In this document: positions 17,360-39,338 of the stretch, piece after piece | Layout: each line of letters opens with the position of its first letter | How positions within the stretch are numbered: the first letter of the stretch is position 1 | Source of the DNA: Sphingomonas sp. IW22 | GTDB lineage: Bacteria; Pseudomonadota; Alphaproteobacteria; Sphingomonadales; Sphingomonadaceae | Direction of reading: 5' to 3' | Assembly (NCBI RefSeq): GCF_041321155.1 | Contig: NZ_JBGGWB010000001.1 | Location: 434,001-498,000 of the forward strand | DNA: 64,000 nucleotides | Made by a program: the position numbers and the translations under genes | Notes under the pieces: model-generated | Seen by the model: only the letters and a program-made list of their open reading frames with translations | Told to the model about the DNA's origin: nothing | The model's database searches: none

Positions 17360-17360
17360 A

Positions 17361-19157: not shown

Positions 19158-19198
19158 AGCGCAATTCCTACGCCGGGTTCACGAAAGCGCGTGTTCAT
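19154..19198 (-). CDS. Putative 14-aa leader peptide of the dehydratase operon
   Basis: ATG 19198 is preceded by AGGAGAGGCTG and opens a frame encoding [14 protein letters not shown]. It stops at TGA 19156-19154, sharing GTGA with the GTG start of the dehydratase. Like the dgoK leader it ends CTG-TGA and carries the only good ribosome site of its operon. A translational-coupling or sensing role is inferred. Confidence 0.4.
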
Positions 19199-19385
19199 CA
19201 GCCTCTCCTACTTGCCTGTTTCGAACTTTATAGGCCCTGCCGGAAGCGGGACAAGCCAAAAGTCTTACAAATGATACTTGTCGGCTGCGGTTGAGGGGAT
19301 TAAGACGCGCTCGATTGCCCCCGACTAAGCGGGCTGCGGCCAAGGCGCTGTTTTCATTCGCCTGGCGTATTTTAGGGAGGATGAC
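19199..19385. promoter_or_regulatory. Divergent dehydratase / TonB-receptor promoter region
   Basis: The minus strand of 19260-19270 reads TTGTAAGACTT, which fits the FadR-subfamily operator pattern TNGTNNNACNT. It overlaps an ACAA-N7-TTGT dyad at 19267-19281 and a CTTGTCG block (19277-19283) shared with the dgoK promoter region. The downstream receptor has AGGGAGG at 19374-19380. Confidence 0.35.
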
Positions 19386-25060: not shown

Positions 25061-26047
25061 TCAGCCAGCTGCCTGATAGATCGCGTCGAGCGTTTCCGCC
25101 GCCCAGCCTAGTGTCCCGGCTGCCGGGTCATAGGCGCGGCTCTCGCTCAGTCGGCGTGCCCATGCCACGGCCGCCCGCCCGCCCCATTCGTCAGGCGGGT
25201 TCGCCAGCCGGGTCGCACGCGTCCCCTCCAGATGATCGAGCGTGAAGTCATAGAATGACCCGGCGACATTGGCGAAGCGCAACGCCCCGCGCGTGCCGGT
25301 GAAGCGCGCCTCGATCTCTGCATCCACGCCGGCGGGCAGGTCCCATGAACAAGCCAGCCGGACCAGTGGCCCGCCGCGTGCCCGCATCTGCACCAGCGCC
25401 AGATCCTCGCACGCCGAACGGCCTGAAATCGGGCACCCACCGGCGAACAGGGCGGCATGGATGGACTTCCATTCCAGCGGCCCGCACACTCCGCCCAGCA
25501 GGTCGATCAGATGGCTGCCCAGGTCGATCAGGCACCCGCCGCCCGACAATGCCGGGTCACGAAACCAGGGCTTGCCGGGGCCGAATGCATTGTGAAAGGT
25601 CAGATCGACGAAGTGCGTTTTCCCGATGCCGCCCGTCGCGATCATGGCCAGCATACGCTCCACCGCCACTGCGCGGCGATAGGAGAAATCCACTGCCAGC
25701 AGCCGGTCGACCCTCCGCGCGCAGGCCAGCACGCGCTGCGTCTCCGCTGCGTCGCGGCCCAGTGGCTTTTGACAGAAGACAGCGTGTCCGACCGAGAGCG
25801 CGCGGATTGCCTGATCGGCGTGCAGCGCGCTGGGTGTTGCGATGACCACCCCGTCCAGCGGCAGCGCCAGAAGCGCATCCAGGTCGTTCATCACGACCGC
25901 GTCCGGAGCCACGACCAGCGCCTCCTCAAGGCTCGCCGCATCGGGTTCGAGCACCGCCGCCGCGCGGGCAAGGCCGCTGTCGATCAGCGCGGCCATTCGA
26001 TGGCGCCCGATCCAGCCGGTCCCGACAAAGCCCAGCGCCAACCTCAT
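25061..26047 (-). CDS. Gfo/Idh/MocA family oxidoreductase
   Basis: A 328-aa NAD(P)-dependent sugar or cyclitol dehydrogenase. The Rossmann motif GFVGTGWIGRHRM is at the N-terminus, and QKPLGRDAAET is a variant of the EKP motif (Glu replaced by Gln). GGGCLIDLGSHLIDLLGG is the usual catalytic H/D region. ATG 26047 overlaps the dehydrogenase stop by ATGA and is preferred over the ATG at 26062. It is the last gene of the leftward arm of the saccharide cluster; an inositol- or nucleotide-sugar-type substrate is inferred from neighbours. Confidence 0.82.
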   Translation of the reverse strand: MRLALGFVGTGWIGRHRMAALIDSGLARAAAVLEPDAASLEEALVVAPDAVVMNDLDALLALPLDGVVIATPSALHADQAIRALSVGHAVFCQKPLGRDAAETQRVLACARRVDRLLAVDFSYRRAVAVERMLAMIATGGIGKTHFVDLTFHNAFGPGKPWFRDPALSGGGCLIDLGSHLIDLLGGVCGPLEWKSIHAALFAGGCPISGRSACEDLALVQMRARGGPLVRLACSWDLPAGVDAEIEARFTGTRGALRFANVAGSFYDFTLDHLEGTRATRLANPPDEWGGRAAVAWARRLSESRAYDPAAGTLGWAAETLDAIYQAAG

Positions 26048-27000
26048 GCCAGCCGCACCCATGCCTTGACGAAGCCGTCCGGCTTTTCGGCGGTGGCGTC
26101 CAGCGCCTCGCCCAGACGCTCGATCGGATAGGCCGCGCTGTAGAGCGGCGTGGGGTCCAGCCAGCCCGCCGCAACCGCCGCAACCGCTTCGGCCAGCCCG
26201 CGACGCTGCACCGCCGGGTTGCGTTCATGCGCGCTGACGATGTCGATCCCCTTCCAGTTCCACATCTGCATGTTGACCTGTCGCGGGCCGTCCTGATGAT
26301 AGCCAGCGATCACCAGCCGCCCGCCCTCTCCCACCAGTTCGCCGGCCAGGTCGAGCGGCCATTGCTTGCCCACCGCCTCGATCACGCATTCGCATCCCCG
26401 GCCCCCGGTCAGCGCGCCGACGCGCTCGATGATGGCCCCGTGATCCTCCATGGGGATCACGTGATCGGCGCCGAATTGCTCCGCCAGCGCCAGCGATTCC
26501 GGCCGGCGCGATATGGCGATCACTCGCGCCCCTGCCCGGCTGGCCAGTCGCGTCAGGATCGCCCCCAGAAAGCCGATGCCGATAATCGCCACCGTCTGTC
26601 CGGCACCGATCGAACTGCGGCGAAAGATGTTGAAGGCACAGCCAATCGCCTCCCCCGGAAAGGGCTGTCCGTCCAGTTCAGGCGGCAGGCGCACGCATGA
26701 TGCAGCCGGTGCAAGGTCATATTCGGCATAGCTGGCCCCGGTAAGCGCGGCGACCCGGTCACCCGGCGACACATTCGTCACGGCGCTCCCCACCGCTTCG
26801 ACAACGCCCCAAGGCTCGTGTCCCAGCCCACCCGGCGGCAGCGGATAGTCGATCCATTCGGAGCCCTGCCACGGCAACAGGTTCGACGCGCACACGCCGC
26901 ACCCTTCGACCCGGATCAGCACTTCGTCGGCGCCGGGGCGCGGCCGTTCCGTCTGAACGACGCGCATCGTGCCGGGCGCGACCAATTGGGCGGCGCGCAT
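26044..27000 (-). CDS. Zinc-dependent alcohol dehydrogenase (MDR superfamily)
   Basis: A medium-chain dehydrogenase, 318 aa from ATG 27000. Catalytic-zinc ligands C37 (GCGVCASN) and H61-E62 (GLGHEPWG) are present, then the Rossmann stretch IIGIGFLGAILTRLA. The four-cysteine structural-zinc lobe of classical ADHs is absent. An in-frame ATG at 27051 would overlap the inositol-phosphate synthase by ~40 nt and is less likely. It could oxidise a sugar or cyclitol intermediate of the cluster; no substrate can be assigned. Confidence 0.82.
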   Translation of the reverse strand: MRAAQLVAPGTMRVVQTERPRPGADEVLIRVEGCGVCASNLLPWQGSEWIDYPLPPGGLGHEPWGVVEAVGSAVTNVSPGDRVAALTGASYAEYDLAPAASCVRLPPELDGQPFPGEAIGCAFNIFRRSSIGAGQTVAIIGIGFLGAILTRLASRAGARVIAISRRPESLALAEQFGADHVIPMEDHGAIIERVGALTGGRGCECVIEAVGKQWPLDLAGELVGEGGRLVIAGYHQDGPRQVNMQMWNWKGIDIVSAHERNPAVQRRGLAEAVAAVAAGWLDPTPLYSAAYPIERLGEALDATAEKPDGFVKAWVRLA

Positions 27001-27010
27001 CGTGGCGGGA

Positions 27011-28114
27011 TCAGTGGGCAATGAACGCCTCCAGTGCGTGACGAGCGACATCGTCGGTCATCTGGACCGGCGGGTGCTTGCAGAACCAGGCGCTGGCCGC
27101 CTCGACCGGGCCGGCCAGCCCGCGATCGCGCGCGACCTTGGCGCAACGGATCATGTCGATCGCCACTCCTGCCGAATTGGGGCTGTCCTCCACCGACAGG
27201 CGCAGTTCCAGGTTCATCGGCACGCCGCCGAACAACCGCCCCTCCATCCGCAGGAAGCAGACCTTGTTGTCGTTCTGCCAGGCGACATAGTCGGACGGGC
27301 CGACATGGATGTCGGCATCGGCCAGCCGTTCGGCGGCGACCGACTGCACGGCTTCGGTCTTTGATTCCTTTTTCGATGCCAGGCGCTTGCGCTCCAGCAT
27401 GTTCAGGAAGTCGGTATTGCCACCGGTGTTCAGCTGATAGGTCCGCTCCAGCTGGACGCCGCGCCGCGCGAACAGGTCGGTCAGCACGCGGTGAACGATG
27501 GTCGCGCCCAGCTGCGCCTTTATGTCGTCGCCGATGATCGGGACACCCGCGGCGGCAAAGCGCGCTCCCCACTTCTCATCGCTGGCCAGAAAGACGGGGA
27601 TCGCATTGACGAACGCAACACCCGCTTCCAGCGCGCATTCGGCGTAGAATTCGCTCGCCTGCTGGCTGCCGACCGGCAGGTAATTGACCAGCACCTCCAC
27701 TTCGCTGTCGCGCAGCACGGCAACGACATCGGACTGCGATGGCTGGTCGGCGTCAGCCAGAACAAAGCTGCGCTCCGGCGGATAATCGGCCATGTGATCG
27801 GCCACCCCGTCCAGCACCCGGCCCATCCTGACCGCCGTGCCGGCACGCGGCACGTCGGCACAGAAGCGCTGGGTGCAGTTGGGCGCCATGAAGATCGCGT
27901 CGGAGACGTCCTGTCCGACCTTGCGCACGTCGATGTCCCACGCGGCGGCAACGCGGATGTCGCTGGCGCGGTAACCCTCGATCACGTCATGGGTCAGCCC
28001 GATCGCGCTGTTCGAATGGTCGCGATAATGGGCGATGCCCTGAACCAGCGAACTGGCACAGTTACCGACGCCGACGATCGCCAGATTGATCGGTTTGGGA
28101 TGGGGCGAGCGCAT
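27011..28114 (-). CDS. ino1: Inositol-3-phosphate synthase
   Basis: It converts D-glucose-6-phosphate to 1L-myo-inositol-1-phosphate (= D-myo-inositol-3-phosphate) using bound NAD+. The sequence is of the short actinobacterial/archaeal type (367 aa): NLAIVGVGNCASSLVQG, VLVNYLPVGSQQASEFYAE, DDIKAQLGATIVHRVL and LNTGGNTDFLNML are hallmark blocks. ATG 28114 has GGGAGG upstream. The enzyme commits carbon to inositol inside an operon with a phosphatase, methyltransferase and two dehydrogenases, and opposite a glycosyltransferase operon. This suggests an inositol-containing product. Confidence 0.9.
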   Translation of the reverse strand: MRSPHPKPINLAIVGVGNCASSLVQGIAHYRDHSNSAIGLTHDVIEGYRASDIRVAAAWDIDVRKVGQDVSDAIFMAPNCTQRFCADVPRAGTAVRMGRVLDGVADHMADYPPERSFVLADADQPSQSDVVAVLRDSEVEVLVNYLPVGSQQASEFYAECALEAGVAFVNAIPVFLASDEKWGARFAAAGVPIIGDDIKAQLGATIVHRVLTDLFARRGVQLERTYQLNTGGNTDFLNMLERKRLASKKESKTEAVQSVAAERLADADIHVGPSDYVAWQNDNKVCFLRMEGRLFGGVPMNLELRLSVEDSPNSAGVAIDMIRCAKVARDRGLAGPVEAASAWFCKHPPVQMTDDVARHALEAFIAH

Positions 28115-28125
28115 GGAAACCTCCC

Positions 28126-29043
28126 TCATTCGGCGGCCGCGGCTTGCGCGCGGGCCGGAGCGTAGCGGTCGATCATGGCCGCACAGAAATCGGCGAACGC
28201 CTGCGGATCGTGCGCACGCGACGTGTGATGCGGCTCAACCCCCAGATGTTCGGGGGTGAAGCAAAAGGTCACGGTGACGTCGAAATCGGCCAGCGCGTCC
28301 ATCTGTCGGTCGAACCAGTCCAGCGCGCCTTCACGAAAGCTGTCCGCCCAGCTGAGGCCCGTTCGCAGCTGACGAACTCCCAACCGCTTCATCCACGCGA
28401 CCGCATCGTCCAGCCGGGGATCGTGGAAATGAAACCATTGCATCAGCCCCATCCGGTCCGCGACCCGCGCATAGGCGTCCAAAGCGGGCTTTGGTGTGCC
28501 GTCGGCGCGGATCAGGCCCATGTGGAAATGCCGGTAATAGCTGGACCCCTCCGCCTCACGGTGGCGGGTGGTCGCGCCCCATTCCATCGGCAGGTCGTAG
28601 AGCGAATACCAATAGATGCGCGGCGCCCGCCCGATCAGCAACTCCGCCGTGCGCTTCAGGCCGAACAGCTGCACCTCATCCGCGCCGAACGATCCGGCAC
28701 CGACCTCCGTCACCCAGACGGGCTTGTCGGGCACCGCCGCCTCAATCTCAGCTAACTTGTCGGGCCAGGCGTGGATCGGCCACAGATTCCAGTCGAGCGG
28801 AAAGCCATGCACCGCAACCACATCGACATGGTCCAGCGCCCCCAGCTCGCGCATCCGGCCCAGCCAGTGCGGGTCGATCGGCGACATGCCGCCCAGCACG
28901 CGCAGCACATCGGGATTGACGGCGGCGATCGCCCCGCCCGTGCGCGTCACCAGATCGGCATAATGCGTCCATTCGGGGTCGAGCAGCGGGTCCCAGTGCG
29001 ACTTGTTGTTGGGCTCGTTCCAGATCATCGCGGCTTCGATCAT
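28126..29043 (-). CDS. GH39-like TIM-barrel glycosidase with apparently permuted order
   Basis: A 305-aa protein with GH-A clan signatures in an unexpected order. It opens almost directly with acid/base E10 in IWNEPNN, then has a nucleophile-like E113 in VWVTEVGAG and YWYSLYDLP (~144-152). Only afterwards comes what is normally the N-terminal part of the barrel: MKRLGVRQLRTGLSW (218-232), FCFTPEHLG (260-268) and FADFCAAMIDRYAP (283-296). The start overlaps the methyltransferase stop by ATGA, so the gene is not simply missing its 5' part. There is no signal peptide, so it acts in the cytosol, possibly as a transglycosidase or glycoside-processing enzyme of the cluster. Confidence 0.7.
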   Translation of the reverse strand: MIEAAMIWNEPNNKSHWDPLLDPEWTHYADLVTRTGGAIAAVNPDVLRVLGGMSPIDPHWLGRMRELGALDHVDVVAVHGFPLDWNLWPIHAWPDKLAEIEAAVPDKPVWVTEVGAGSFGADEVQLFGLKRTAELLIGRAPRIYWYSLYDLPMEWGATTRHREAEGSSYYRHFHMGLIRADGTPKPALDAYARVADRMGLMQWFHFHDPRLDDAVAWMKRLGVRQLRTGLSWADSFREGALDWFDRQMDALADFDVTVTFCFTPEHLGVEPHHTSRAHDPQAFADFCAAMIDRYAPARAQAAAAE

Positions 29044-29837
29044 TCACCCCTCCTCGCCGGATAGACGGCTGCATCCTGAAAGCTGGCGCACGGCACGGGG
29101 GCGGTGCGGCACAGATAGACTTCGGGTTCGGGATTGGCCTCGATCGAAAAGCCCGCAGCGCGCAGCATTGCCTGCGTGCCCGCCGGATTTGGCGCCCACC
29201 AGTTGGTCGGATCCCCGGCAAAGCTGTGTTCGATGAAATGGAGGCGCGGATAGCCCGGCGCATCGAAATAGCCGGGCGGGTCATAGGTGCCCGGCAGGTG
29301 GAACGGGTGGTCGCGCGGCGGATCGAACGGCGGCGCCGTCCCCTGCTGCATCGTCTGGAAAAGCATCCGGTCGCCCGCCACATGTTCGCGGATCAGGTCG
29401 AGCGCCAGCAACGGATGGCGCAGGTGGTACAGCACCCCCATGAACACCACCAAGTCGAACCGCTCGCCCAGTGCCGCCACGTCATAGACCGACATCCGGC
29501 GATACTCGATCCTGTCGAAGCCCAGCCGGTCGGCGACGAACCGCGCCTGCGCCAGATAATGCGGGTCGCTGTCGATTCCGACCACCCGCTCAGCCCCGCG
29601 CCGCGCCATTTCGACCGAATAGAAGCCGGCATTGCAGCCGATATCCAGCACTGTCAGCCCGCTCAGGTCGCCCGGCACCGCATCGGCAAAGCGCGCGAAT
29701 TTGAAGGCGGGATAATCGCCCAGAAAATGGTCCGGCGCAGTCGAAACCCCGTGGCCCAGATCGATATTCTGGAACCACGGATGCAGCGCCGCGACCTGTG
29801 CCCGCAGATCGTCGGCGCGTTGGGCGGCGGCGCTCAT
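29040..29837 (-). CDS. SAM-dependent methyltransferase, TIGR04290-like
   Basis: A 265-aa class I methyltransferase. Motif I is LTVLDIGCNAGFYSVEMARRG, with GIDSDPHYLAQA and FDLVVFMGVLYHLRHPLLAL following; the arrangement is CmoB-like, but the protein is much shorter than CmoB. I associate it with the TIGR04290 family found in saccharide gene clusters of several proteobacteria, from memory and not by search. ATG 29837 overlaps the phosphatase stop by ATGA. It may O-methylate a sugar or cyclitol. Confidence 0.78.
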   Translation of the reverse strand: MSAAAQRADDLRAQVAALHPWFQNIDLGHGVSTAPDHFLGDYPAFKFARFADAVPGDLSGLTVLDIGCNAGFYSVEMARRGAERVVGIDSDPHYLAQARFVADRLGFDRIEYRRMSVYDVAALGERFDLVVFMGVLYHLRHPLLALDLIREHVAGDRMLFQTMQQGTAPPFDPPRDHPFHLPGTYDPPGYFDAPGYPRLHFIEHSFAGDPTNWWAPNPAGTQAMLRAAGFSIEANPEPEVYLCRTAPVPCASFQDAAVYPARRGE

Positions 29838-30427
29838 GCCGTCACCTCGTTCAACGTGATCAGAACGGGCGATCCGTCGTGGCGGATATGCGTCACCGAA
29901 GCCGGATCGACGGCATAACGGTGAATATGGTCCAGGCTGAGGCCCAGCACCCCGGCAACCGCCGCGCGGATGACGTCGCCATGCGTGACCATTGCCACGC
30001 TTCCGATGGCGCCTGACCGCGCGACGCGTTCGATATGGTCCAGAACGCGCGCCTGTACGCGGCGCATCGTCTCCCCGCCCGGTGACGCCCCCTCTGCACG
30101 AGCACGGTTCCATTCGTGCCACGCAGGATCGGCGCTCAGTTCGTCGAAGCGGCGCCCGGTCCAGTCGCCGAAATCGATCTCGTCCAGCGCATCGACGGTC
30201 TGAACCGGCAACTGGTGCGGGGCCGCGATCCGCGCTGCGGTTTCCTGTGCGCGCCCGACGGGACTGGTTTCAACCCGATCGAACGAGCGGCCGGCCAGCC
30301 GATCCGCAAGCCGGTCTGCATCTGCCCGCCCCTCGTCCACCAACCCCGCGCACGCTCCACGTCCGGAAAGCACAACCCCAAGATCGGCATGTCTGGCATG
30401 ACGTATCAGCAGAATATCACACGCCAA
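29834..30427 (-). CDS. Histidine phosphatase family protein
   Basis: A 197-aa branch-1 histidine phosphatase. The phospho-accepting His is in LLIRHARHAD near the N-terminus, with a second His in AMVTHGDVIRAAV and the acid in LDEIDFGDWTGR. It is the first gene of the leftward arm. Since inositol-3-phosphate synthase is in the same operon and no IMPase-family gene is, it may serve as the sugar/inositol phosphatase. Phosphoglycerate mutase or CobC-like functions are alternatives. Confidence 0.85.
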   Translation of the reverse strand: MACDILLIRHARHADLGVVLSGRGACAGLVDEGRADADRLADRLAGRSFDRVETSPVGRAQETAARIAAPHQLPVQTVDALDEIDFGDWTGRRFDELSADPAWHEWNRARAEGASPGGETMRRVQARVLDHIERVARSGAIGSVAMVTHGDVIRAAVAGVLGLSLDHIHRYAVDPASVTHIRHDGSPVLITLNEVTA

Positions 30428-30605
30428 TTAATATTCCTCTATAACAAATATAATAAAGCACTGTGGCGAAGTCAGCATCTACAAAGCTGCCAGCGCTTCT
30501 TTTGTTCCGTGAGCTTCTTCTTGTTGAGGAACCAAGATGATGCCCGTCAGTTAGATTGTCCTATTTGGCGATGGTTTCTTTAACATTGATAATATACGGG
30601 GGTTA
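30428..30605. promoter_or_regulatory. AT-rich bidirectional promoter region of the saccharide cluster
   Basis: These 178 bases are strikingly AT-rich for this genome (TA-rich runs at 30428-30465 and 30570-30598). They separate the histidine-phosphatase arm from the epimerase-glycosyltransferase arm, and there is no ORF. Single regulation of both arms from here is likely. Confidence 0.6.
30528..30552 (+). promoter_or_regulatory. Candidate EcfG-type promoter for the glycosyltransferase operon
   Basis: GGAAC (30528-30532), then 16 bases, then AGTT (30549-30552): one mismatch to GGAAC-N16/17-CGTT, 54 nt upstream of the first epimerase start. A second GGAAC on the opposite strand (30510-30506) has no good -10 partner. 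Confidence 0.35.
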
Positions 30606-31727
30606 ATGCCGATGTCGGAAACCGTTCTTGTAACTGGCGGAGCTGGTTTCATTGGCCGCGCGGTGATTGCGCGACTGGTCGATCAGGGTCACCGCGTCCG
30701 TGTGCTGGATGCGCTGGTCGAGCAGGTGCATGGCGGCAGCGGCTGGCCCGCCGAACTGACGGGAATGGCCGAATGCGTGGCGGGCGATGTGCGCGATCCC
30801 GATGCGGTCGAACGCGCGCTGGACGGTATCGATTCGGTCATCCACCTGGCAGCAGAGGTCGGCGTCGGCCAGTCGATGTACGAGGTGGAGCGCTATACCG
30901 CCGTCAACGAACTGGGCAGTGCGATCCTGTTCGAAAAGCTGATCGGCCGCCCCATTCGCCGTGTCGTCACCGCATCGTCGATGAGCATTTACGGCGAAGG
31001 GCTATACCGCGACGCCGACGGCAACCCGGTCGAGGATGCGCGGCGCATCGCCGTCCGCGACCAACAGCGCGAATGGAACCCGCTGGACGATCAGGGCCGC
31101 CCGCTGATCCCCGTCGCCACGCCGGAAAGCAAGCGCCCCTCGCTCGAATCCATCTATGCGCTCGGCAAATATGTGCAGGAACGCCAGACGCACATCATGG
31201 CCCAGGCCTATGGCTATGAGGGGGTCTGCCTGCGCCTGTTCAACGTCTATGGCCCGGGTCAGGCACTGTCGAACCCCTATACCGGTGTGCTGGCGATCTT
31301 TGCCTCGCGATTGATGAACGGCGAGCGGCCGATGATCTTCGAGGATGGCGAGCAGCGGCGCGATTTCGTGCATGTCGACGATGTCGCACGGGCCTTTTGC
31401 GATGCGCTGACGGTGCCCGGCGCAGCGGGACATACGCTGAACATCGGCTCCGGCACGGATCGTTCGGTGCGTGAGATTGCAGAGACGCTGGCGACCGCGC
31501 TGGGGCGCGCGGAACTGTCACCCGAAATCGTCAGCAAGGGGCGGATCGGCGACATCCGCCACTGCTTCTGCGACACGCGGCTGGCGCGCGAGATTATCGG
31601 GTTCGAGGCGCAGGAGGATTTCGGCGCCGGGGTCCAGCGCCTTGCCCAATGGGTGTCCGAACAGCGCGCGACCGACCGCGTGGCGACGGCGCGCGCCGAA
31701 CTCGAAGCACGCGGGCTGGTTTCGTGA
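30606..31727 (+). CDS. NAD-dependent sugar epimerase (extended SDR, dTDP-rhamnose 4-epimerase-like)
   Basis: A 373-aa nucleotide-sugar epimerase. It has the Rossmann motif VTGGAGFIGRAV, the TASSMSIYGEG strand and the SDR catalytic pair in SIYALGKYVQE (YxxxK). The long insert GLYRDADGNPVED...TPESKRPSLES resembles the dTDP-L-rhamnose 4-epimerase / WbiB branch. The start may be ATG 30606 or ATG 30612, with GGGGG upstream of both. It is the first gene of the seven-gene rightward arm; its stop shares GTGA with the next start. Confidence 0.85.
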   Translation: MPMSETVLVTGGAGFIGRAVIARLVDQGHRVRVLDALVEQVHGGSGWPAELTGMAECVAGDVRDPDAVERALDGIDSVIHLAAEVGVGQSMYEVERYTAVNELGSAILFEKLIGRPIRRVVTASSMSIYGEGLYRDADGNPVEDARRIAVRDQQREWNPLDDQGRPLIPVATPESKRPSLESIYALGKYVQERQTHIMAQAYGYEGVCLRLFNVYGPGQALSNPYTGVLAIFASRLMNGERPMIFEDGEQRRDFVHVDDVARAFCDALTVPGAAGHTLNIGSGTDRSVREIAETLATALGRAELSPEIVSKGRIGDIRHCFCDTRLAREIIGFEAQEDFGAGVQRLAQWVSEQRATDRVATARAELEARGLVS

Positions 31728-32776
31728 GCGGGCGTCGCGTGCTGGTGACCGGGGGCGCGGGCTTCATCGGTTGCAATCTGGCCGACCGGCTGGCGCAACA
31801 GGGCGACCGGGTGATCGTCTATGACTCGCTGGTACGCCCTGGGACCGAGGCGAATGCCCGCTGGCTGGCGCAGCGCCACGCGGCTTCGGTCGAAGTCGTC
31901 ATTGCCGACATTCTGGAACATGACGCGCTGGCCGACGCGGTCAGCCGGGCCGATGCGGTGGTACATCTGGCGGCTCAGGTCGCAGTGACGACCAGTCTGG
32001 TCGAACCGCTCGCGGATTTCGCCGTCAACCTGACGGGCACGATCGGCATCCTCGAACTGATCCGTGCCAGCACCCACCGGCCACCGATGGTCCTGGCATC
32101 GACAAACAAGGTCTACGGCAATCTCGACACGGTCGAACTGGCACTGGGCGAGGATGGCTATGCCCCCGTTGATGACGACACGCGCACACGCGGTGTCGGA
32201 GAAGCAACGCCGCTGGACTTCAAATCGCCCTATGGCTGCTCAAAGGGGGCGGCCGACCAATATGTCCTCGATTACGCGCACAGCTTCGGGCTGCGCACGC
32301 TGGTCTTTCGCATGAGCTGCATCTTTGGCGAGCGGCAGACCGGCAGTGAGGATCAGGGATGGGTCGCGCATTTCGCGCGCCGCGCGGCAGCGGGCGATCC
32401 GATCACCCTGTTCGGCGACGGCTGGCAGGTCCGCGATCTGCTGGACGTGCGCGATTGCGTCGATGCCTATGTCGCGGCACTCGACCGGATCGACACGGTT
32501 TCGGGGCGCGCCTTCAATCTGGGTGGCGGGTCCGCCAATGCCGTCAGCCTTCGCACCGTGCTGGACTCGCTGGAGGAGATGACCGGGCGTCCATTGAATG
32601 TGGACCGCGCCGATTGGCGGTCGGGCGATCAGCGGTGGTACGTGTCGGACAGCCGTGCCGCGCGTGCGGCCCTCGGCCTCGCCCCGCCACGCCACTGGCG
32701 TCATGCGCTGGACGATCTGGTACGTAGCTTTGAACAGAGCCAGCGGCCGCCCCTTCGACCGGTGCAGGCGCTGTGA
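31724..32776 (+). CDS. NAD-dependent epimerase (CDP-tyvelose/paratose 2-epimerase-like)
   Basis: An extended SDR of 350 aa starting at GTG 31724. It has VTGGAGFIGCNLADRL, LASTNKVYGNLD (the Asn-Lys-Val-Tyr strand typical of the RfbE/tyvelose-epimerase branch), the YxxxK pair in PYGCSKGAADQYV, and FRMSCIFGERQTGSEDQGWVAHF. Two different epimerases in a row suggest the cluster makes an uncommon nucleotide sugar. It overlaps its neighbours by GTGA at both ends. Confidence 0.85.
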   Translation: MSGRRVLVTGGAGFIGCNLADRLAQQGDRVIVYDSLVRPGTEANARWLAQRHAASVEVVIADILEHDALADAVSRADAVVHLAAQVAVTTSLVEPLADFAVNLTGTIGILELIRASTHRPPMVLASTNKVYGNLDTVELALGEDGYAPVDDDTRTRGVGEATPLDFKSPYGCSKGAADQYVLDYAHSFGLRTLVFRMSCIFGERQTGSEDQGWVAHFARRAAAGDPITLFGDGWQVRDLLDVRDCVDAYVAALDRIDTVSGRAFNLGGGSANAVSLRTVLDSLEEMTGRPLNVDRADWRSGDQRWYVSDSRAARAALGLAPPRHWRHALDDLVRSFEQSQRPPLRPVQAL

Positions 32777-33870
32777 GGCATTTGCTGATGACGGCCGACG
32801 CGGTCGGGGGCGTATGGCAATATGCGATCGACCTGTCGCGCGCGCTGGGCCCGCTGGGGTGGAACGTCACGCTGGCGACGCTCGGCCCGGCGCCCGACCG
32901 CGACCAGCGTGCGGCGGCAAGCGCGCTGCCCAATCTGGAACTGCACGTCACCGACCTGCCACTCGACTGGCTGGAACAGGGGGCCGCACCGGTGCTTCGC
33001 GCCGCCGACGGCATTGCCACCCTGGCCGCTGCCCAGGGGTGCGACGTGGTTCAGCTGAACATGCCGACACTGGCCGCAGGGGAGCGGTTCACGGTGCCGA
33101 CGGTGGCAGTCACGCATGGCTGTGTCGCGACATGGTGGGCGGGCGCGCGCGGCGATCCGCTGGCGCCCCAATATCAATGGCATGCCCGGCTGATGCGGCA
33201 GGGACTGACCCGCGCCGACGCGGTGGTGGCGCCCAGTCACAGCTATGCCCGGATGGTCGCCAGCCATTACGCGCTGGATCAAAATCCGGCGGTGGTCTGC
33301 AATGGCCGTGACGCGCCCACCGCGCCCGAACATCCGGCGTTACAGGATTATGTGCTGACCGTCGGGCGGCTGTGGGACCGTGCGAAGAATATCGACACGC
33401 TGGACATCGCCGCCGGACAGCTGGCCGTCCCATTTCACGCGGCGGGCGCGCTGGTCGGTCCGCATGGCGAACGCGCCGCCATCCGGCATATTCATCCGCT
33501 GGGCCAGTTGTCGGGCGATGCGCTGGCGACATGGCGCGCGCCGCGTCCGGTATTCGTTTCCGCCGCCCGGTTCGAACCCTTTGGTCTGTCGGTGCTCGAG
33601 GCGGCGCAATCGGGTTGCGCGCTGGTGCTGTCCGACATCCCCACCTTTCGCGAGCTGTGGGACGGTGTGGCGGTCTTTGTCGATGCGGAAGACGCAAGCG
33701 GCTTTCGTCAGGCGATCGAGGGGCTGATCGGCAACCCCGCCCGCCGCCACGCGATGGGCGAAGCGGCGCTCGACCATGCCCGCCAGTATCGATGCAGCGC
33801 CGCCGCGCGCGACATGGACCGGATCTTCAACCGGCTGATGGCCGACAGCGCAAGGCGGGCCGCGGCATGA
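32773..33870 (+). CDS. Glycosyltransferase, GT4-like (GT-B fold)
   Basis: A 365-aa retaining GT-B glycosyltransferase starting at GTG 32773. The C-terminal donor site FVSAARFEPFGLSVLEAAQSG is the GT4 E-x7-E motif, preceded by VLTVGRLWDRAKNIDTL. The N-terminal VGGVWQYAIDLSRAL is typical of the acceptor domain. There is no membrane segment, so it acts in the cytosol. It probably adds the first or second sugar of the product; donor unknown. Confidence 0.87.
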   Translation: MRHLLMTADAVGGVWQYAIDLSRALGPLGWNVTLATLGPAPDRDQRAAASALPNLELHVTDLPLDWLEQGAAPVLRAADGIATLAAAQGCDVVQLNMPTLAAGERFTVPTVAVTHGCVATWWAGARGDPLAPQYQWHARLMRQGLTRADAVVAPSHSYARMVASHYALDQNPAVVCNGRDAPTAPEHPALQDYVLTVGRLWDRAKNIDTLDIAAGQLAVPFHAAGALVGPHGERAAIRHIHPLGQLSGDALATWRAPRPVFVSAARFEPFGLSVLEAAQSGCALVLSDIPTFRELWDGVAVFVDAEDASGFRQAIEGLIGNPARRHAMGEAALDHARQYRCSAAARDMDRIFNRLMADSARRAAA

Positions 33871-34973
33871 GGATCGCCTATCTCACGCACAGCCTTGAGA
33901 GCTGCTGGAACCATGGCAACGCGCATTTCCTGCGCGGCGTTTTCCGGGCGCTGATGGCGCTGGGCCATCAGGTGGAAATTCTGGAGCCTGAAGATAGCTG
34001 GAGCCGTGCCAATCTAGTCGCGGATCATGGCGAAGCCGGCATCGCGCCCTTTCGTCGCGCCTATCCCGAACTGGCCGCAACCCGATATGTCGGGATCGAG
34101 CAAGCCGTGGACCGGGCCGCTCAGGCCGATCTTGTCATCGTCCATGAATGGAACGACCACGCGCTGGTCAAGGCGATGGGCGAGCGGCGCAAGCGCGGCG
34201 GCGGCTTTCGCCTGTTGTTCCACGACACCCACCACCGCGCCGTCAGCGAGCCGGAAGCCATGCGTGCCTATGACCTGTCGGGCTTTGACGGGGTGCTGGC
34301 CTTTGGCGAAGCGCTGGCGGCGGTCTATCGTCGCTGGGGCTGGGACGATCAAATCTGGGTCTGGCATGAGGCCGCCGATACCCGGCTGTTCCACCCCCCG
34401 GCCGGGTCCGCCGAACGAAGCGGTCTGGTGTGGATCGGCAATTGGGGGGACGGCGAGCGGACGGCAGAGCTTGAATCCTTCCTGCTGCGCCCCGCACAGG
34501 AATCGGAATTGCCGCTCGACATTCACGGCGTGCGCTATCCCGCCGAAGCGCTGGCGATGCTCGACCGTTACGGTGTGCGCTATCGCGGATGGTTGCCCAA
34601 TGCCCGCGCGCCAGAGGTCTTCGCCCGCCATCTGGCCACCGTCCACGTCCCGCGCCGCCATTATGTCGAGGCGCTGCCCGGCATCCCTACGATCCGCGTG
34701 TTCGAGGCGCTGGCCTGCGGCATCCCGCTGGTCAGCGCGCCCTGGGACGATTGCGAAGGGCTGTTCCGCATCGGTCAGGATTTCCTGATGGCACGCGACG
34801 GCGAAGAGATGCGCCGCCACCTGATCGCAATTCGCGACGACGCCGATCTGCGCAACGCGCTGGTCGCGTCGGGGCTGGAGCGCATCGCCGCGCGGCACAG
34901 CTGCGGCCACCGCGCGGGCGAATTGATGGACATCGCCCGCCAACTCGACACCCCCGAAAGGAGTGCCGCATGA
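33867..34973 (+). CDS. Glycosyltransferase (GT-B, CgeB-related)
   Basis: A 368-aa GT-B enzyme that begins MRIAYLTHSLESCWNHGNAHFLRG and ends with the donor-binding block IPTIRVFEALACGIPLVSAPWDDCEGLF. VIVHEWNDHALVKAMGERR and FHDTHHRAVSEPE are conserved-looking acceptor-side blocks. The Cys/Trp-rich N-terminus and lack of GT4 EX7E suggest the CgeB-like branch. ATGA overlaps link it to both neighbours. Confidence 0.8.
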   Translation: MRIAYLTHSLESCWNHGNAHFLRGVFRALMALGHQVEILEPEDSWSRANLVADHGEAGIAPFRRAYPELAATRYVGIEQAVDRAAQADLVIVHEWNDHALVKAMGERRKRGGGFRLLFHDTHHRAVSEPEAMRAYDLSGFDGVLAFGEALAAVYRRWGWDDQIWVWHEAADTRLFHPPAGSAERSGLVWIGNWGDGERTAELESFLLRPAQESELPLDIHGVRYPAEALAMLDRYGVRYRGWLPNARAPEVFARHLATVHVPRRHYVEALPGIPTIRVFEALACGIPLVSAPWDDCEGLFRIGQDFLMARDGEEMRRHLIAIRDDADLRNALVASGLERIAARHSCGHRAGELMDIARQLDTPERSAA

Positions 34974-36058
34974 AGATTGCCTTTTACGGCTCCAGCATCC
35001 TGTCCGCTTATTGGAACGGCGCCGCGACCTATTATCGCGGCATCCTGAACGATCTGGCGCGGCGCGGCCATGCCATCACCTTTTACGAACCCGACGCCTT
35101 TGACCGGCAACAGCATCGCGACATCGACCCGCCCGAATGGCTGCGATCGGTCGTCTATCCGGCGACGCAGCAGGGGCTGCAATCGGTCCTTGCCGAAGCG
35201 GGCGACGCCGATGTCGTGGTGAAGGCAAATGGCGTCGGCGTGTTCGACGCTGAATTGCTGGCCGGCATCCTGAGCGAAAGCCGCCGTGACGCACTGCGGA
35301 TCTTCTGGGATGTCGACGCGGCCGAAACGCTGGCCGAAATGCGGCGGGCCGACGATCATCCGGTGCGCGCCGCCCTGCCCCGGCTGGACGCGGTGTTCAC
35401 CTATGGCGGTGGGGAGCCGGTGATCGCTGCCTATCGCGGCTTTGGCGCGACACGGTGCGTGCCGGTTTATAACGCGCTGGACCCGGACAGCCATTTCCCG
35501 GTCGAACCAGACCCACGCTTTGTCTGCGACCTGGGATTTCTGGGTAACCGGCTGCCCGACCGCGATGCGCGGGTCGCGGAATTCCTGTTCGACGCGGCAC
35601 GGCGCACGCCGGATCGCCGCTATATGCTGGGCGGCGCCGGATGGGACCATGCTCCGATGCCCGACAATGTAACGCGGCTGGGCCATGTGTCGACGCGCGA
35701 CCACAATGCCTTCAACGCCACGCCGCTGGCGGTGCTGAACGTTGCGCGCGATGCGATGGCGGCCAACGGCTTTTCCCCCGCCACGCGCGTATTCGAAGCC
35801 GCCGGGGCCGCCGCCTGTCTGATCACCGATGCGTGGGAGGGGATCGAGCTGTTCCTGAAACCGGATGAGGAAGTGCTGGTGGCGCGTGACGGTCGCGATG
35901 TCGCCGAGTTGCTGGAGGCACTTACGCCACAGCGCGCGCACGACATTGGCCGCGCGGCGCTGGCGCGGGTGCGGGGTGAACACAGCTATACCCAGCGAGG
36001 AGAGCTGGTCGACGCGGTGCTGAGTGAAATGGCCGCGGCGCGGCGGGTGGCGGCATGA
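34970..36058 (+). CDS. CgeB-family glycosyltransferase
   Basis: A 362-aa protein with the CgeB/Glyco_trans_1_2 layout: N-terminal MKIAFYGSSILSAYWNGAATYYRGIL, central FWDVDAAETLAEMRR and LDAVFTYGGGEPV, then LGFLGNRLPDRDARV and the C-terminal ATRVFEAAGAAACLITDAWEGIELFL. Start ATG 34970 has AAAGGAG upstream and overlaps the previous stop. It shares clear similarity in layout with the next gene (GNRLPDR vs GTYSPDRQP; RVFEAAGAAACL vs RLFEAGACGTAIL), so the pair probably arose by duplication. Confidence 0.85.
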   Translation: MKIAFYGSSILSAYWNGAATYYRGILNDLARRGHAITFYEPDAFDRQQHRDIDPPEWLRSVVYPATQQGLQSVLAEAGDADVVVKANGVGVFDAELLAGILSESRRDALRIFWDVDAAETLAEMRRADDHPVRAALPRLDAVFTYGGGEPVIAAYRGFGATRCVPVYNALDPDSHFPVEPDPRFVCDLGFLGNRLPDRDARVAEFLFDAARRTPDRRYMLGGAGWDHAPMPDNVTRLGHVSTRDHNAFNATPLAVLNVARDAMAANGFSPATRVFEAAGAAACLITDAWEGIELFLKPDEEVLVARDGRDVAELLEALTPQRAHDIGRAALARVRGEHSYTQRGELVDAVLSEMAAARRVAA

Positions 36059-37146
36059 AGATCGTCGTCCTGGGCCTGAGCCTCAGTTCGGCATGGGGCA
36101 ATGGCCATGCCACGACCTGGCGCGCGTTGCTTCGCGGCATGGCGGCACGCGGCCATGCGGTGCATTTTCTGGAGCGCGACATGCCATGGTATGCCGCGCA
36201 TCGCGACCTGCCCGCGCCCGATTTCTGCGCGTTCGACCTGTATGACGGGCTGGATCAGCTCGACGCCTTTGCGCCCATGGTGCACGCTGCCGATGCGGTG
36301 ATCGTCGGCTCCTATGTCCCCGACGGCGTCGCCGTCGCACACTGGGTTCAGCGCCAGGCGGGCGGGGTGACTGCCTTTTACGACATCGACACGCCGGTCA
36401 CGCTGGCCAAGCTGGGCCGGGGGGACCACGAATATCTCGACCCCGACACCATCGCCGGTTTCGACCTTTATTTGTCCTTCACCGGCGGGCCGACCCTGAC
36501 CCGGCTGGAGCGCGAACATGGGGCGCAGCGGGCAGAGGCGCTGTATTGCGCAGTCGATGCCGCACGGTATCGCCCGACCGGCGCGCTCAAGCGGTGGGAC
36601 CTGTCCTATCTGGGAACCTACAGCCCCGACCGGCAACCCACGCTGGACCGGCTGCTGATCCAGGTAGCGCGGCGGATGCCCGACCGGCGCTTTGCCGTGG
36701 CGGGACCGCAATATCCCGTGGAGATCGAGTGGCCATCCAATGTCGAGCGGATCGACCATCTGCCGCCAGAGCAACATGCCGATTTCTATTCGGCGTCGCG
36801 CTATACGCTGAACGTCACGCGCGACGACATGCGCGCGGCGGGATGGTCCCCCTCGGTCCGCCTGTTTGAAGCCGGCGCGTGCGGCACCGCCATTCTGTCA
36901 GACCGCTGGCCGGGGATTGAGGATGTGCTGCGCCCGCCCGCCGAAATCGCGCTGGTCGACACGACCGACGATGTGATCGCCGCCATCGCCCGCGATGCCG
37001 CGCCGCTGGGCGCCGCCGCGCGCCGCGCCGTTCTGGCCCGCCACACCGCCGCCCACCGCGCCGCCGAACTCGAAGCCCTGCTTGCCGAACTGCGCCGCCC
37101 CTCCACGGGCACGCAGCCGGCCCCCAATATCGCCCTGACGGCGTGA
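36055..37146 (+). CDS. CgeB-family glycosyltransferase
   Basis: A 363-aa paralogue of the preceding gene. MKIVVLGLSLSSAWGNGHATTWRALLRGM opens the acceptor domain, TAFYDIDTPVTLAKL and FDLYLSFTGGPTL form the middle, and LSYLGTYSPDRQPTLDRLL plus VRLFEAGACGTAILSDRWPGIEDVL the donor side. It overlaps the previous gene by ATGA and the following UDP-xylose synthase by GTGA. Having two such enzymes suggests successive transfers of the same or related sugars. Confidence 0.85.
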   Translation: MKIVVLGLSLSSAWGNGHATTWRALLRGMAARGHAVHFLERDMPWYAAHRDLPAPDFCAFDLYDGLDQLDAFAPMVHAADAVIVGSYVPDGVAVAHWVQRQAGGVTAFYDIDTPVTLAKLGRGDHEYLDPDTIAGFDLYLSFTGGPTLTRLEREHGAQRAEALYCAVDAARYRPTGALKRWDLSYLGTYSPDRQPTLDRLLIQVARRMPDRRFAVAGPQYPVEIEWPSNVERIDHLPPEQHADFYSASRYTLNVTRDDMRAAGWSPSVRLFEAGACGTAILSDRWPGIEDVLRPPAEIALVDTTDDVIAAIARDAAPLGAAARRAVLARHTAAHRAAELEALLAELRRPSTGTQPAPNIALTA

Positions 37147-38168
37147 CCGGAGCACCACTGACAATGCCGAACGCCCAACCCTTTCACCTGATCGCTGGCG
37201 GTGCCGGCTTCATCGGGTCGCACCTGTGCCGCACCCTTTTGGATCGCGGGGACCGGGTGTTGTGCGTCGACAATCTGCAAAGCGCATGGCCCGGCAACCT
37301 CGAAACGCTGCGCGACCGGGCGGGGTTCGAATTCGTACAGGCCGACATCTCCGCCCCACTGCCCGCCACCGTGACGCGTCGCACCGCCGCCGTCACGAAT
37401 ATCTGGAACCTGGCATGCGCCGCGTCGCCGCCGCGCTATCAGGCGGACCCCGAACATACGATGATGACCAATGTCGTCGGCACCGACCAGCTGCTCCGGC
37501 TGGCGGAGACCGCGGGCGCGCGGTTCCTGCTGACCTCGACCAGCGAGGTTTACGGCGACCCCGAACAGCATCCGCAGGTGGAGGCATATCGCGGGCGCGT
37601 CAACTGCACCGGCCCGCGCGCCTGCTATGACGAGGGGAAGCGCGCGGCCGAAACGCTGTCGTTCGATTTCGGTCGGCTGAAGCGCGCCGACGTTCGCGTG
37701 GCGCGCATCTTCAACACCTATGGCCCGCACATGCAGGCTGATGACGGGCGCATCATTTCGAATGTGATAACCCAGATGCTTGGGGGTGATGCGATCACCG
37801 TCTATGGCGCGGGCACGCAGACGCGCAGCCTTTGCTATGTCGACGACATGGTCGACGGACTGATCCGGCTGATGGAATCGGAGCAGGCGGGCGACGGTCC
37901 GGTCAATCTGGGCAACCCGGACGAACGGACGGTTCTGGAAATCGTGGCGACGATCGCCAGGGTTATCGGGGTCGAGCCCAAGATCCTGTTTCAATCATTG
38001 CCGCAGGACGACCCGCTGCGCCGCCGGCCCGACATCACCCGCGCACAGCAATTGCTGGGCTGGAACCCGGTGACCGCGGCCGAAACCGGCATTGCCCGCA
38101 CGGTCGACTGGTTTCGCGGCGCCCGGCTCGCCGACGGCACTACCGCCATGGGCATCGCCGCCGAATAA
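37143..38168 (+). CDS. uxs: UDP-glucuronate decarboxylase (UDP-xylose synthase)
   Basis: An extended SDR that makes UDP-xylose from UDP-glucuronate. Diagnostic blocks are IAGGAGFIGSHLCRTLL, NLACAASPPRYQADP, TSTSEVYGDPEQHPQ and the catalytic CYDEGKRAAE (YxxxK), followed by RIFNTYGPHMQADDGRIISN and RSLCYVDD. The frame opens at GTG 37143, overlapping the previous stop, but ATG 37164 with GGAG eleven bases upstream is an equal candidate. The product predicts xylose (or an epimer made by the two upstream SDRs) as a donor for the glycosyltransferases. Confidence 0.88.
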   Translation: MTGAPLTMPNAQPFHLIAGGAGFIGSHLCRTLLDRGDRVLCVDNLQSAWPGNLETLRDRAGFEFVQADISAPLPATVTRRTAAVTNIWNLACAASPPRYQADPEHTMMTNVVGTDQLLRLAETAGARFLLTSTSEVYGDPEQHPQVEAYRGRVNCTGPRACYDEGKRAAETLSFDFGRLKRADVRVARIFNTYGPHMQADDGRIISNVITQMLGGDAITVYGAGTQTRSLCYVDDMVDGLIRLMESEQAGDGPVNLGNPDERTVLEIVATIARVIGVEPKILFQSLPQDDPLRRRPDITRAQQLLGWNPVTAAETGIARTVDWFRGARLADGTTAMGIAAE

Positions 38169-38208: not shown

Positions 38209-38934
38209 TTACCCCTCGATCGGCTGGTAATCGGTCACGCGCGCCAGCGTCTCCGGATCCGGCAGTTCCATACCCAGCCGGGTGGAGCGCACCATCATCT
38301 CTCGGCGAAGCTGCTGCATCGTCCGGTTCAGGTGAACCGTCGTCAGCCCCAGCGTTTCGCCCAGCATTTCCTGCGTCAGCGGCATGGCGATCACGTTACG
38401 CACATCGCCGCCCGCGGCTGCCTGACGCTCCCGCAGTTCGAGCAGCAAATGGCCCAGCCGCTCATAGGCGGACTGGCGCCCCAGCCGCATGACCTGATTG
38501 CGAAGCAGCGCCGTCGCCATCCAGTCCAACCGGCGGCCAAGCTGCTGGAACGGCGCCTCATCCCAGATGGTGGGTTCGATGGCGCATGACGCCACTTCGG
38601 TCAGCGCGACGACCAGATCGTTCGGCGATGCCGCGGCGGTGGAGGACGCGACCTGAACGATATCCCCCGGGATGAACAGTTCGATCAGCTGCCGCCGTCC
38701 GTCCGACAGGATACGCACGCGCCCGGCCCACCCGCTGATCAACGCGCGCTGGACGGTCGGGAATCGCAGCTCCGCCATCATCGTGGCGCGCGGCGCCAGT
38801 CGGCGGGGCGGATACAGCGACCGCTGAAACGCATCGATATCCTCGGCGGACAGCCCGCCCATCCTTCGCAATCGTTCCAGCACCGGGTTGTCGGGCGCGT
38901 GATGAACGGGGCGTGCAAGTTCGACGATCTTCAA
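38209..38934 (-). CDS. Crp/Fnr-family transcriptional regulator
   Basis: A 241-aa regulator with a cyclic-nucleotide-binding-like jelly roll (residues ~25-150; GRVRILSDGRRQLIELFIPGDIV) and a C-terminal winged helix (MPLTQEMLGETLGLTTVHLNRTMQQLRRE, ~175-205). The Arg that contacts the cAMP phosphate is not evident and the Fnr iron-sulfur cysteines are absent, so the signal is unknown. TTG 38934 with GGAG upstream overlaps the receiver-gene stop (TTGA). Co-transcription with a receiver and kinase suggests they form one signalling unit. Confidence 0.85.
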   Translation of the reverse strand: MKIVELARPVHHAPDNPVLERLRRMGGLSAEDIDAFQRSLYPPRRLAPRATMMAELRFPTVQRALISGWAGRVRILSDGRRQLIELFIPGDIVQVASSTAAASPNDLVVALTEVASCAIEPTIWDEAPFQQLGRRLDWMATALLRNQVMRLGRQSAYERLGHLLLELRERQAAAGGDVRNVIAMPLTQEMLGETLGLTTVHLNRTMQQLRREMMVRSTRLGMELPDPETLARVTDYQPIEG

Positions 38935-39338
38935 TTTGCTTCTCCGTCCTTTGGCACGACGACCGGGCCGAGCATGCGGCCCAGCGCCCCGACCAGGTCG
39001 CTCTGACTGAATGGCTTGTCGATGCGGATGACCCGGCGCCAGCGGTCGGGTAGCGACCAATGCTCATAACCGGTGGTAAACAGATATGGGATCGAGCGCC
39101 TTTCCAGTTCGGTCGCAACCGGAAATGAAAGCACCCCATCCAGATTCACGTCCAGCACCGCCGCGTCGATCGCAGCGGATTGGATGGCGTCCAGCGCCTG
39201 CTGTATGTACGCCACCGGACCGACAACCAGCGCTCCGGCGCGCTTCAGCGTTCTTCCGACATCGGCCGCAATCAGGTAGGCGTCCTCGACGACGAGGATC
39301 GACTGGCCTGCAAGCGGCGCGTCGGACGACGCATTCAT
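38931..39338 (-). CDS. Single-domain response regulator
   Basis: A 135-aa receiver with no output domain. The phospho-acceptor Asp lies in DAAVLDVNLDGVLS, acidic residues in ILVVEDAYLIA, the Thr in LFTTGYEHW and the Lys in IRIDKPFSQSDL. Its start overlaps the kinase stop and its stop overlaps the Crp-like start, so kinase, receiver and regulator are made together. It is probably the phosphorylation target of the HWE kinase, as is common for HWE/HisKA2 kinases in alphaproteobacteria. Confidence 0.9.
   Translation of the reverse strand: MNASSDAPLAGQSILVVEDAYLIAADVGRTLKRAGALVVGPVAYIQQALDAIQSAAIDAAVLDVNLDGVLSFPVATELERRSIPYLFTTGYEHWSLPDRWRRVIRIDKPFSQSDLVGALGRMLGPVVVPKDGEAN

What the first reader, a model, noticed from the sequence alone, without database searches (positions are those of the whole stretch)
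25061..38168. Undescribed bidirectional saccharide gene cluster with an inositol branch
Thirteen genes diverge from one AT-rich promoter region. Overlapping starts and stops link most genes within each arm. The right arm makes unusual nucleotide sugars (two epimerases, UDP-xylose synthase) and has four glycosyltransferases. The left arm adds inositol-3-phosphate synthase, a phosphatase, a methyltransferase, a permuted glycosidase and two dehydrogenases. There is no undecaprenyl-phosphate initiating enzyme, flippase, polymerase, ABC exporter or capsule gene. A soluble, methylated, xylose-containing oligosaccharide or cyclitol glycoside, perhaps a protectant, fits best.
Basis: inference. Interest (0 to 1): 0.75.

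Follow-up and report, generated by a model that had tools for sequence, protein, structure and literature searches.

The report
Stress-linked methylated inositol-sugar gene cluster
A conserved set of about a dozen bacterial genes, found in Sphingomonas and in the well-studied plant partner Sinorhizobium meliloti, appears to build an unknown methylated sugar compound under general-stress control, and one of its enzymes is a sugar-cutting protein whose chain order has been naturally rearranged.

Summary
Thirteen genes (6 left, 7 right) diverge from a 178-bp, 60% AT gap; 8 of 11 junctions are 4-bp overlaps. The cluster is real: 61 of 81 well-flanked, non-identical loci carry at least 9 of the 13 genes. 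In 36 same-genus genomes the TIGR04290 methyltransferase and SDR2 occur together in 13 and are both absent from 23. A full version lies on S. meliloti 1021 pSymB, a fused type on R. etli p42b. Most likely product: a cytosolic, O-methylated, xylose-containing oligosaccharide, on inositol in this lineage, made as a stress protectant. Product and stress dependence are inferred. Against a universal inositol branch: two genomes with the fused type have no Ino1.

The parts
25061..26047 (-). Gfo/Idh/MocA dehydrogenase; best NCBIfam match inositol 2-dehydrogenase, far below cut-off
26044..27000 (-). Zn-dependent alcohol dehydrogenase; best NCBIfam match scyllo-inosose 3-dehydrogenase, below cut-off
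27011..28114 (-). Ino1, myo-inositol-3-phosphate synthase; PF01658 above cut-off, 406 bits to the M. tuberculosis enzyme (1gr0; organism of that entry recalled)
28126..29043 (-). Circularly permuted clan GH-A glycosidase; invariant WNEPNN (E10) and T/S-E-V-G (E113); chain starts at canonical strand 4
29040..29837 (-). TIGR04290 family methyltransferase, 350.6 bits against cut-off 300 (scanned as the longer ORF 29040-30122)
29834..30427 (-). Histidine phosphatase (His_Phos_1), candidate inositol-3-phosphate phosphatase; start uncertain (TTG; gene caller starts at 30340)
30428..30605 (.). AT-rich divergent promoter region
30528..30552 (+). EcfG-type motif GGAAC-N17-GTT, 53 bp before the SDR1 ATG; the same class of motif is conserved upstream of SDR1 in other loci
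30606..31727 (+). SDR1, NDP-sugar epimerase-like protein of the GalE-like superfamily with an insertion
31739..32776 (+). SDR2, NDP-sugar 2-epimerase-like; best solved match CDP-tyvelose 2-epimerase (235 bits, next best 147)
32773..33870 (+). GT4-family glycosyltransferase
33867..34973 (+). CgeB-like glycosyltransferase a (PF13524; scanned as the longer ORF 33372-34973)
34970..36058 (+). CgeB-like glycosyltransferase b (PF13524; scanned as the longer ORF 34589-36058)
36055..37146 (+). CgeB-like glycosyltransferase c (PF13524); fused to SDR3 in 16 other loci, so a candidate xylosyltransferase
37143..38168 (+). SDR3, UDP-xylose synthase-like (305 bits to UXS1)

Best explanation
This is a general-stress-response biosynthetic cluster that assembles, in the cytosol, a small O-methylated hetero-oligosaccharide. 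SDR1-SDR3 make three NDP-sugars: a 4-epimer, a 2-epimer such as NDP-mannose, and UDP-xylose. Four transferases (GT4, CgeB a, b, c) add them in turn, CgeBc being the likely xylosyl step. In this lineage Ino1 and the histidine phosphatase supply free inositol, most simply as the acceptor. TIGR04290 O-methylates the acceptor or the chain. The permuted GH-A enzyme trims, transfers or recycles the glycoside. EcfG (PhyR-NepR-EcfG cascade) turns on both arms, and the product serves as a compatible solute or desiccation protectant. Shown here: gene content, conservation, co-occurrence, motif enrichment, permutation and fusions. Inferred: every substrate, the product, its location and its physiological role.
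For: Enzyme assignments. All-or-none co-occurrence of the methyltransferase (left arm) and SDR2 (right arm): both in 13, neither in 23 of 36 same-genus genomes. In 17 genomes whose fetched locus lacked SDR2, SDR2 is present elsewhere in all 17 (the 18th genome searched, G020, has it in the locus). Ino1 somewhere in the genome in 13 of 13 methyltransferase-positive and 12 of 23 negative genomes. Motif at operon heads, non-redundant set: SDR1 25/47, HisP 24/43, Ino1 6/7, MT 13/22, other upstream regions 21/337; four reversed or scrambled motifs 0-2 each at these heads and 0-4 of 337 elsewhere. R. etli p42b region: 11 motifs against 1.0 in shuffles, 9 of the 11 lying 27-133 bp before a same-strand start; S. 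meliloti pSymB region: 8 against 1.3. NepR in the window's own genome. Stress-type neighbours: Mn catalase, DUF892, HWE kinase. No signal peptide or membrane span is apparent by hydropathy (two values exceed 1.6, see full report). Fusions: CgeBc-SDR3 in 16 loci, GH-SDR2 in 2 of the 106 loci and in many Rhizobiaceae.
Against: Two genomes with the fused-GH form have no Ino1, so inositol is not needed for the core chain there. The strict form GGAAC-N16-17-CGTT is much rarer at the heads (SDR1 6/47, HisP 0/43, Ino1 2/7, MT 9/22, other 3/337). The Azospirillum locus has no motif (0 against 0.7 expected), and the window as a whole has 2 against 1.9 expected, so in the window the motif claim rests on conservation; the HisP side has GGAAC without a GTT at the right distance. 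Nine motif strings from the S. melonis Fr1 EcfG table do not match the S. melonis AS2.3 cluster. Polysaccharide-type neighbours (pyruvyl transferase, GT9) recur beside it. The p values are not corrected for shared ancestry.
Confidence: 0.45

Rival explanations
1. The cluster makes a stress-induced cell-surface glycan: the oligosaccharide is built on a lipid or LPS/glycosphingolipid core and exported by machinery encoded elsewhere.
For: Recurrent neighbours in other genomes are a polysaccharide pyruvyl transferase (f17), an FrhB-type protein (f15), a GT9 protein (f13) and DUF6165 (f14). The R. etli copy lies on p42b, a plasmid recalled to carry LPS genes.
Against: No initiating transferase, flippase, polymerase or exporter recognised among the 41 window ORFs scanned nor annotated in the fetched stretches around the R. 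etli or Azospirillum copies. The pyruvyl/FrhB/GT9/DUF6165 genes occur in only 15-31 of the 106 loci. The set occurs both in sphingomonads and in rhizobia, which differ in surface lipids (recalled).
Confidence: 0.3
2. Two separate pathways share a regulated promoter: the left arm makes a methylated inositol or inosose derivative, the right arm a glycan unrelated to it.
For: The arms are apart in some genomes. ZnADH and Gfo/Idh resemble inositol dehydrogenases at sub-cut-off level. Ino1 and HisP are missing in the fused-GH type.
Against: The methyltransferase and SDR2 are co-inherited without exception in 36 genomes. The left-arm glycosidase is replaced by a version fused to the right-arm SDR2. 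The methyltransferase lies directly after SDR3 in R. etli.
Confidence: 0.17
3. The cluster glycosylates a protein such as flagellin.
For: CgeB-like transferases are loosely linked with surface or spore glycans (recalled).
Against: No flagellin was recognised among the recurrent neighbour families inspected, but this was not searched systematically.
Confidence: 0.04

Closest known systems
TIGR04290 / TIGR04295 (B12_rSAM_oligo) families, NCBIfam hypothetical equivalogs
   Same: The methyltransferase scores above the TIGR04290 cut-off.
   Different: They are protein-family models without assigned function; they do not describe the pathway, its control, Ino1, the permuted glycosidase or the fusions. 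TIGR04295 is not in this window's cluster.
EcfG / RpoE2 general stress regulon of Alphaproteobacteria
   Same: Conserved GGAAC-N17-18-GTT motifs at the operon heads, within the GGAAC-N17-20-GTT motif of S. melonis Fr1 (PMC6599016: section 6 and passages seen).
   Different: Dependence was not measured; the passages seen of PMC3616915 and PMC6180224 did not name SMb2022x-2024x genes (my guess at the numbering), and supplements were not readable.
PslG and other clan GH-A retaining glycosidases
CDP-tyvelose 2-epimerase
   Same: SDR2 and the SDR2 part of the fusion are closest to it by a wide margin.
   Different: No cluster protein listed reaches the cut-off of the CDP-glucose 4,6-dehydratase model of the tyvelose pathway.
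Mycobacterial methylated polysaccharide (MGLP/MMP) operons (recalled)
   Same: Cytosolic methyltransferase, phosphatase or hydrolase and GT4 genes making an intracellular methylated glycan.
   Different: No NDP-sugar SDR trio, CgeB transferases or Ino1 (recalled); not tested here.

Membership tests
TIGR04290 methyltransferase | Score above curated cut-off 300 | tested here: met
   350.6 bits
Mycothiol-type Ino1 (TIGR03450) | Score above curated cut-off 638 | tested here: not met
   448.4 bits
Inositol-1-phosphate synthase domain (PF01658) | Score above cut-off 27 | tested here: met
   122-125 bits
UDP-xylose synthase | Closest solved relatives are UDP-glucuronate decarboxylases rather than other SDRs | tested here: met
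   305 bits to UXS1, next molecule 125 bits; activity not testable
CDP-tyvelose biosynthesis | 2-epimerase together with CDP-glucose 4,6-dehydratase | tested here: not met
   SDR2 fits, but TIGR02622 reaches at most 76 bits against 278 among the matches listed for the cluster proteins (lists capped at 25 families)
Clan GH-A retaining glycosidase | Acid/base Glu in WNEP and nucleophile Glu on strand 7 of a barrel | tested here: met
Circular permutation | Two segments of one homologue align in swapped order, and rotation raises the score | tested here: met
   199-295 then 7-242 in L067, 198-295 then 7-185 in L071; score 250 to 327 and 248 to 348 on rotation; hhalign E 1.5e-25 for one segment
EcfG/RpoE2 regulon | Motif at operon heads above background | tested here: met
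   window itself one site; none in the Azospirillum locus
EcfG/RpoE2 regulon | Transcription lost in ecfG/rpoE2 mutant | not testable with these tools
Wzx/Wzy or ABC-exported polysaccharide locus | Initiating transferase plus flippase/polymerase or ABC exporter nearby | tested here: not met
   none recognised among 41 window ORFs (38 of 51 called genes)

The most novel reading that the evidence does not exclude
A patchily distributed but class-wide alphaproteobacterial stress metabolite, a methylated xylosyl-oligosaccharide of inositol (or of another acceptor in the Ino1-less form), made under EcfG control. Its dedicated glycosidase was captured by circular permutation out of an epimerase fusion (or the reverse) and acts as an intracellular transglycosidase rather than a degradative enzyme.
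Probability: 0.25. Interest if true: 0.85.

Novelty: new variant of a known kind. Interest (0 to 1): 0.62.

Why it matters
Large parts of alphaproteobacterial general-stress regulons have no known function. This cluster is a concrete candidate for a stress glycan shared by sphingomonads, rhizobia, methylobacteria and azospirilla, and it lies on pSymB of the genetic model S. meliloti 1021, where its product and control can be tested directly. The permuted and unpermuted glycosidases in equivalent clusters are also a clean natural example of circular permutation of a catalytic barrel.

Tried and rejected
Carboxymethyl transfer: TIGR04290 is related to CmoB, which uses carboxy-SAM (recalled). In the second alignment the WRKGP stretch of the CmoB-type chain faces WFQNI here; that its lysine binds carboxy-SAM is recalled. 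I therefore read it as an ordinary SAM enzyme.

EcfG motif in the form GGAAC-N15-18-CGTT: not enriched in the window (2 matches, 1.65 expected) or the genome (101 matches against 201 for the pattern read backwards). Only the position-specific comparison between loci is informative.

S. melonis Fr1: nine motif strings printed in PMC6599016 (of a table of about 50) were compared with the S. melonis AS2.3 locus L127; the best was 6 mismatches in 25 bases, i.e. no match. A different strain was available, and only the printed table.

Ramlibacter paper PMC3164672 (passages only): the terms tried gave no mention of this cluster. Paper searches on TIGR04290, CgeB with Ino1 or inositol, paratose epimerase with Rhizobium, tyvelose epimerase with UDP-mannose, and PhyR/EcfG with glycan terms returned nothing. 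Search on permuted TIM-barrel glycosidases: six papers seen as a listing only.

Fold searches with the permuted model gave assorted TIM barrels: GH20 and GH84 hexosaminidases, sugar 3-epimerases and flavin enzymes in the 50 rows shown; also some GH-A enzymes (GH5, GH10, GH1, GH2), all at TM 0.28-0.42. GH-A families are not excluded by this. The unpermuted domain had no Pfam match above cut-off and no PDB match by sequence, although its model matches GH-A enzymes strongly.
Full report
WHAT IS THERE. The window belongs to a Sphingomonas-like genome (the third-best glycosidase match, 97% identical over its full length, is named Sphingomonas sp.; the two 100% matches bear no source name). The thirteen genes exist as described. 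Refined gene ends come from a codon-usage gene caller and junction arithmetic. Domain content: left arm HisP (His_Phos_1), TIGR04290 methyltransferase, glycosidase (weak Glyco_hydro_cc, below cut-off), Ino1, Zn-ADH, Gfo/Idh/MocA; right arm SDR1, SDR2, GT4, three CgeB-like PF13524 transferases, SDR3 (the name CgeB is recalled, Pfam calls the domain Glyco_trans_1_2). By comparison with solved structures SDR3 is closest to UDP-xylose synthase (305 bits), SDR2 to CDP-tyvelose 2-epimerase (235 bits, next 147), Ino1 to the inositol-3-phosphate synthase 1gr0 (406 bits). Hydropathy shows no signal-like N-terminus in the cluster proteins; the highest 19-residue values are 1.91 (ZnADH) and 1.68 (Ino1), in nucleotide-binding enzymes of soluble families, so I do not read them as membrane spans. 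SDR1 and HisP were judged there on shortened forms.

CONSERVATION. A scan of one genome per species returned 288 confirmed relatives of the methyltransferase, of which the tool kept the best 80 as loci. For the promoter test the set was 105 of these plus the window (in L151 the called methyltransferase did not join the family): 97 non-identical, 67 after removing near-duplicates. Of 81 non-identical loci with at least 8.5 kb on both sides (window left out), 61 hold at least 9 of the 13 genes (44 of 54 after removing near-duplicates). Per gene in those 81: MT 81 (the query), GHcc 77 (two of these are the unpermuted, fused form), CgeBb 66, CgeBc 66, SDR2 62, GT4 62, CgeBa 62, SDR1 60, ZnADH 57, Gfo/Idh 57, HisP 51, SDR3 49, Ino1 44; the CgeB paralogues cross-match, so their three counts are approximate. 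Of 18 genomes searched for SDR2, all 18 have it; in 17 it was absent from the fetched locus and lies elsewhere, and in one (G020) it is in the locus. In 36 same-genus genomes the methyltransferase and SDR2 agree perfectly at E <= 1e-40, 13 with both and 23 with neither (Fisher p 4e-10, not corrected for ancestry). Ino1 is in 13 of 13 of the former and 12 of 23 of the latter (p 0.003). The cluster is patchy: TIGR04290 is above cut-off in 14 of 398 sampled genomes of the phylum (all 14 in the same class), the glycosidase is found in 8 of 385 sampled genomes of the class, own genome counted in both.

MODEL ORGANISMS. Plasmid records with a match to the permuted glycosidase number 97, among them Sinorhizobium 66, Roseomonas 10, Azospirillum 5, Rhizobium 5 and Paracoccus 4; the GH-SDR2 query matches 154 records, 50 of them over at least 80% of its length. 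I fetched four stretches. In S. meliloti 1021 the cluster lies on pSymB at about 242-260 kb (NC_003078, locus L176, which carries no annotation in this collection): MT, SDR3, CgeBc, CgeBb, GT4, SDR2, SDR1 on one strand, ZnADH and Gfo/Idh diverging, then Ino1, HisP, glycosidase. CgeBa was not scored separately there because the long CgeBb query covers its end, but strain R11 has an annotated glycosyltransferase at that place. In R. etli CFN42 the fused type lies on p42b as RHE_RS22255 to RHE_RS22300. In Azospirillum lipoferum the cluster includes a TIGR04295 radical-SAM protein.

STRESS-TYPE PROMOTERS. S. melonis EcfG is reported to recognise GGAAC-N17-20-GTT (PMC6599016, section 6 read). I counted GGAAC-N17-18-GTT in the right orientation in upstream regions of the 67-locus set: SDR1 25 of 47, HisP 24 of 43, Ino1 6 of 7, MT 13 of 22 (where each is preceded by a gap of at least 60 bp), against 21 of 337 for other genes in the same loci. 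Four reversed or scrambled motifs occur 0 to 2 times at these heads and 0 to 4 times in the 337. The stricter GGAAC-N16-17-CGTT is rarer: 6 of 47, 0 of 43, 2 of 7, 9 of 22, against 3 of 337. The median distance to the called start is 76-104 bp. In the R. etli region there are 11 motifs against 1.0 in shuffles, 9 of them 27-133 bp before one of 13 same-strand gene starts that I listed; S. meliloti 8 against 1.3; Azospirillum 0 against 0.7; the window 2 against 1.9, one of which is the site at 30528-30552 before SDR1. The window's genome encodes NepR. Neighbours are stress-type genes: DUF892, Mn catalase, a CheB/CheR/PAS/HWE kinase, a Crp-type regulator. I infer general-stress control; no expression data for these genes were accessible.

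FUSIONS AND TWO CLUSTER TYPES. CgeBc and SDR3 form one ORF in 16 loci (at least one pair, L050 and L111, is the same genome), which suggests that CgeBc uses UDP-xylose. The three loci with the GH-SDR2 fusion (L067, L071, R. etli) lack HisP and Ino1 nearby. The two whole genomes behind L067 and L071 have no Ino1 at E <= 1e-20, whereas two comparison genomes with the permuted type have it; those two fusion genomes have no separate permuted glycosidase. So Ino1, HisP and the permuted glycosidase look like one module, and inositol may be a lineage-specific acceptor.

READING. The simplest mechanism is cytosolic assembly of a short, methylated, xylose-containing glycan by four transferases, on inositol in this lineage, induced by stress. 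The main rival is a stress-induced surface glycan exported by machinery elsewhere, hinted at by pyruvyl-transferase and GT9 neighbours in some genomes. I put the joint best explanation at 0.45, with the biosynthetic nature and the stress-type promoters much more certain than the product.

NOVELTY. Two member families were already modelled by NCBI as hypothetical equivalogs. My searches of the held library found no description of the system; subscription journals are mostly not held.

Noticed in passing
window 46910-50724: TonB-dependent receptor followed directly by a phytase (PF02333); a possible outer-membrane route for inositol phosphates about 9 kb from an inositol-making cluster.
   Followed up: no
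window 12984-23131: Pentose-type catabolic genes: two GH43, an aldose epimerase, a gluconolactonase-like protein, a dihydroxy-acid/6-phosphogluconate dehydratase-family protein and a TonB receptor.
   Followed up: no
window 38209-44106: Crp-type regulator, response-regulator-like ORF, 1199-aa CheB-CheR-PAS-HWE kinase and Mn catalase: a stress or signalling island next to the cluster; a Crp family recurs in 12 loci, window included, and HWE-kinase matches in several.
   Followed up: partly
L173, L113, L091 and others (families f13, f14, f15, f17): GT9-like, DUF6165, FrhB-type and polysaccharide pyruvyl transferase genes travel together near the cluster in many genomes; not seen in this window's cluster.
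   Followed up: partly
L174 (R. etli p42b) 9089-9895 and 8356-9078: A nucleotidyltransferase with a motif 29 bp upstream, followed by a metallophosphoesterase, beside the Ino1-less cluster; possibly an alternative supply of the acceptor.
   Followed up: no
L173 (S. meliloti R11 pSymB) 1467-15917: Several cluster genes (MT, SDR3, SDR1, Ino1, HisP) match in two or more pieces in R11 but in one piece in strain 1021; sequencing error or decay, not examined.
   Followed up: no
L108: A record titled Microvirga sp. SRT01 carries a cluster typical of sphingomonads; the label may be wrong.
   Followed up: no
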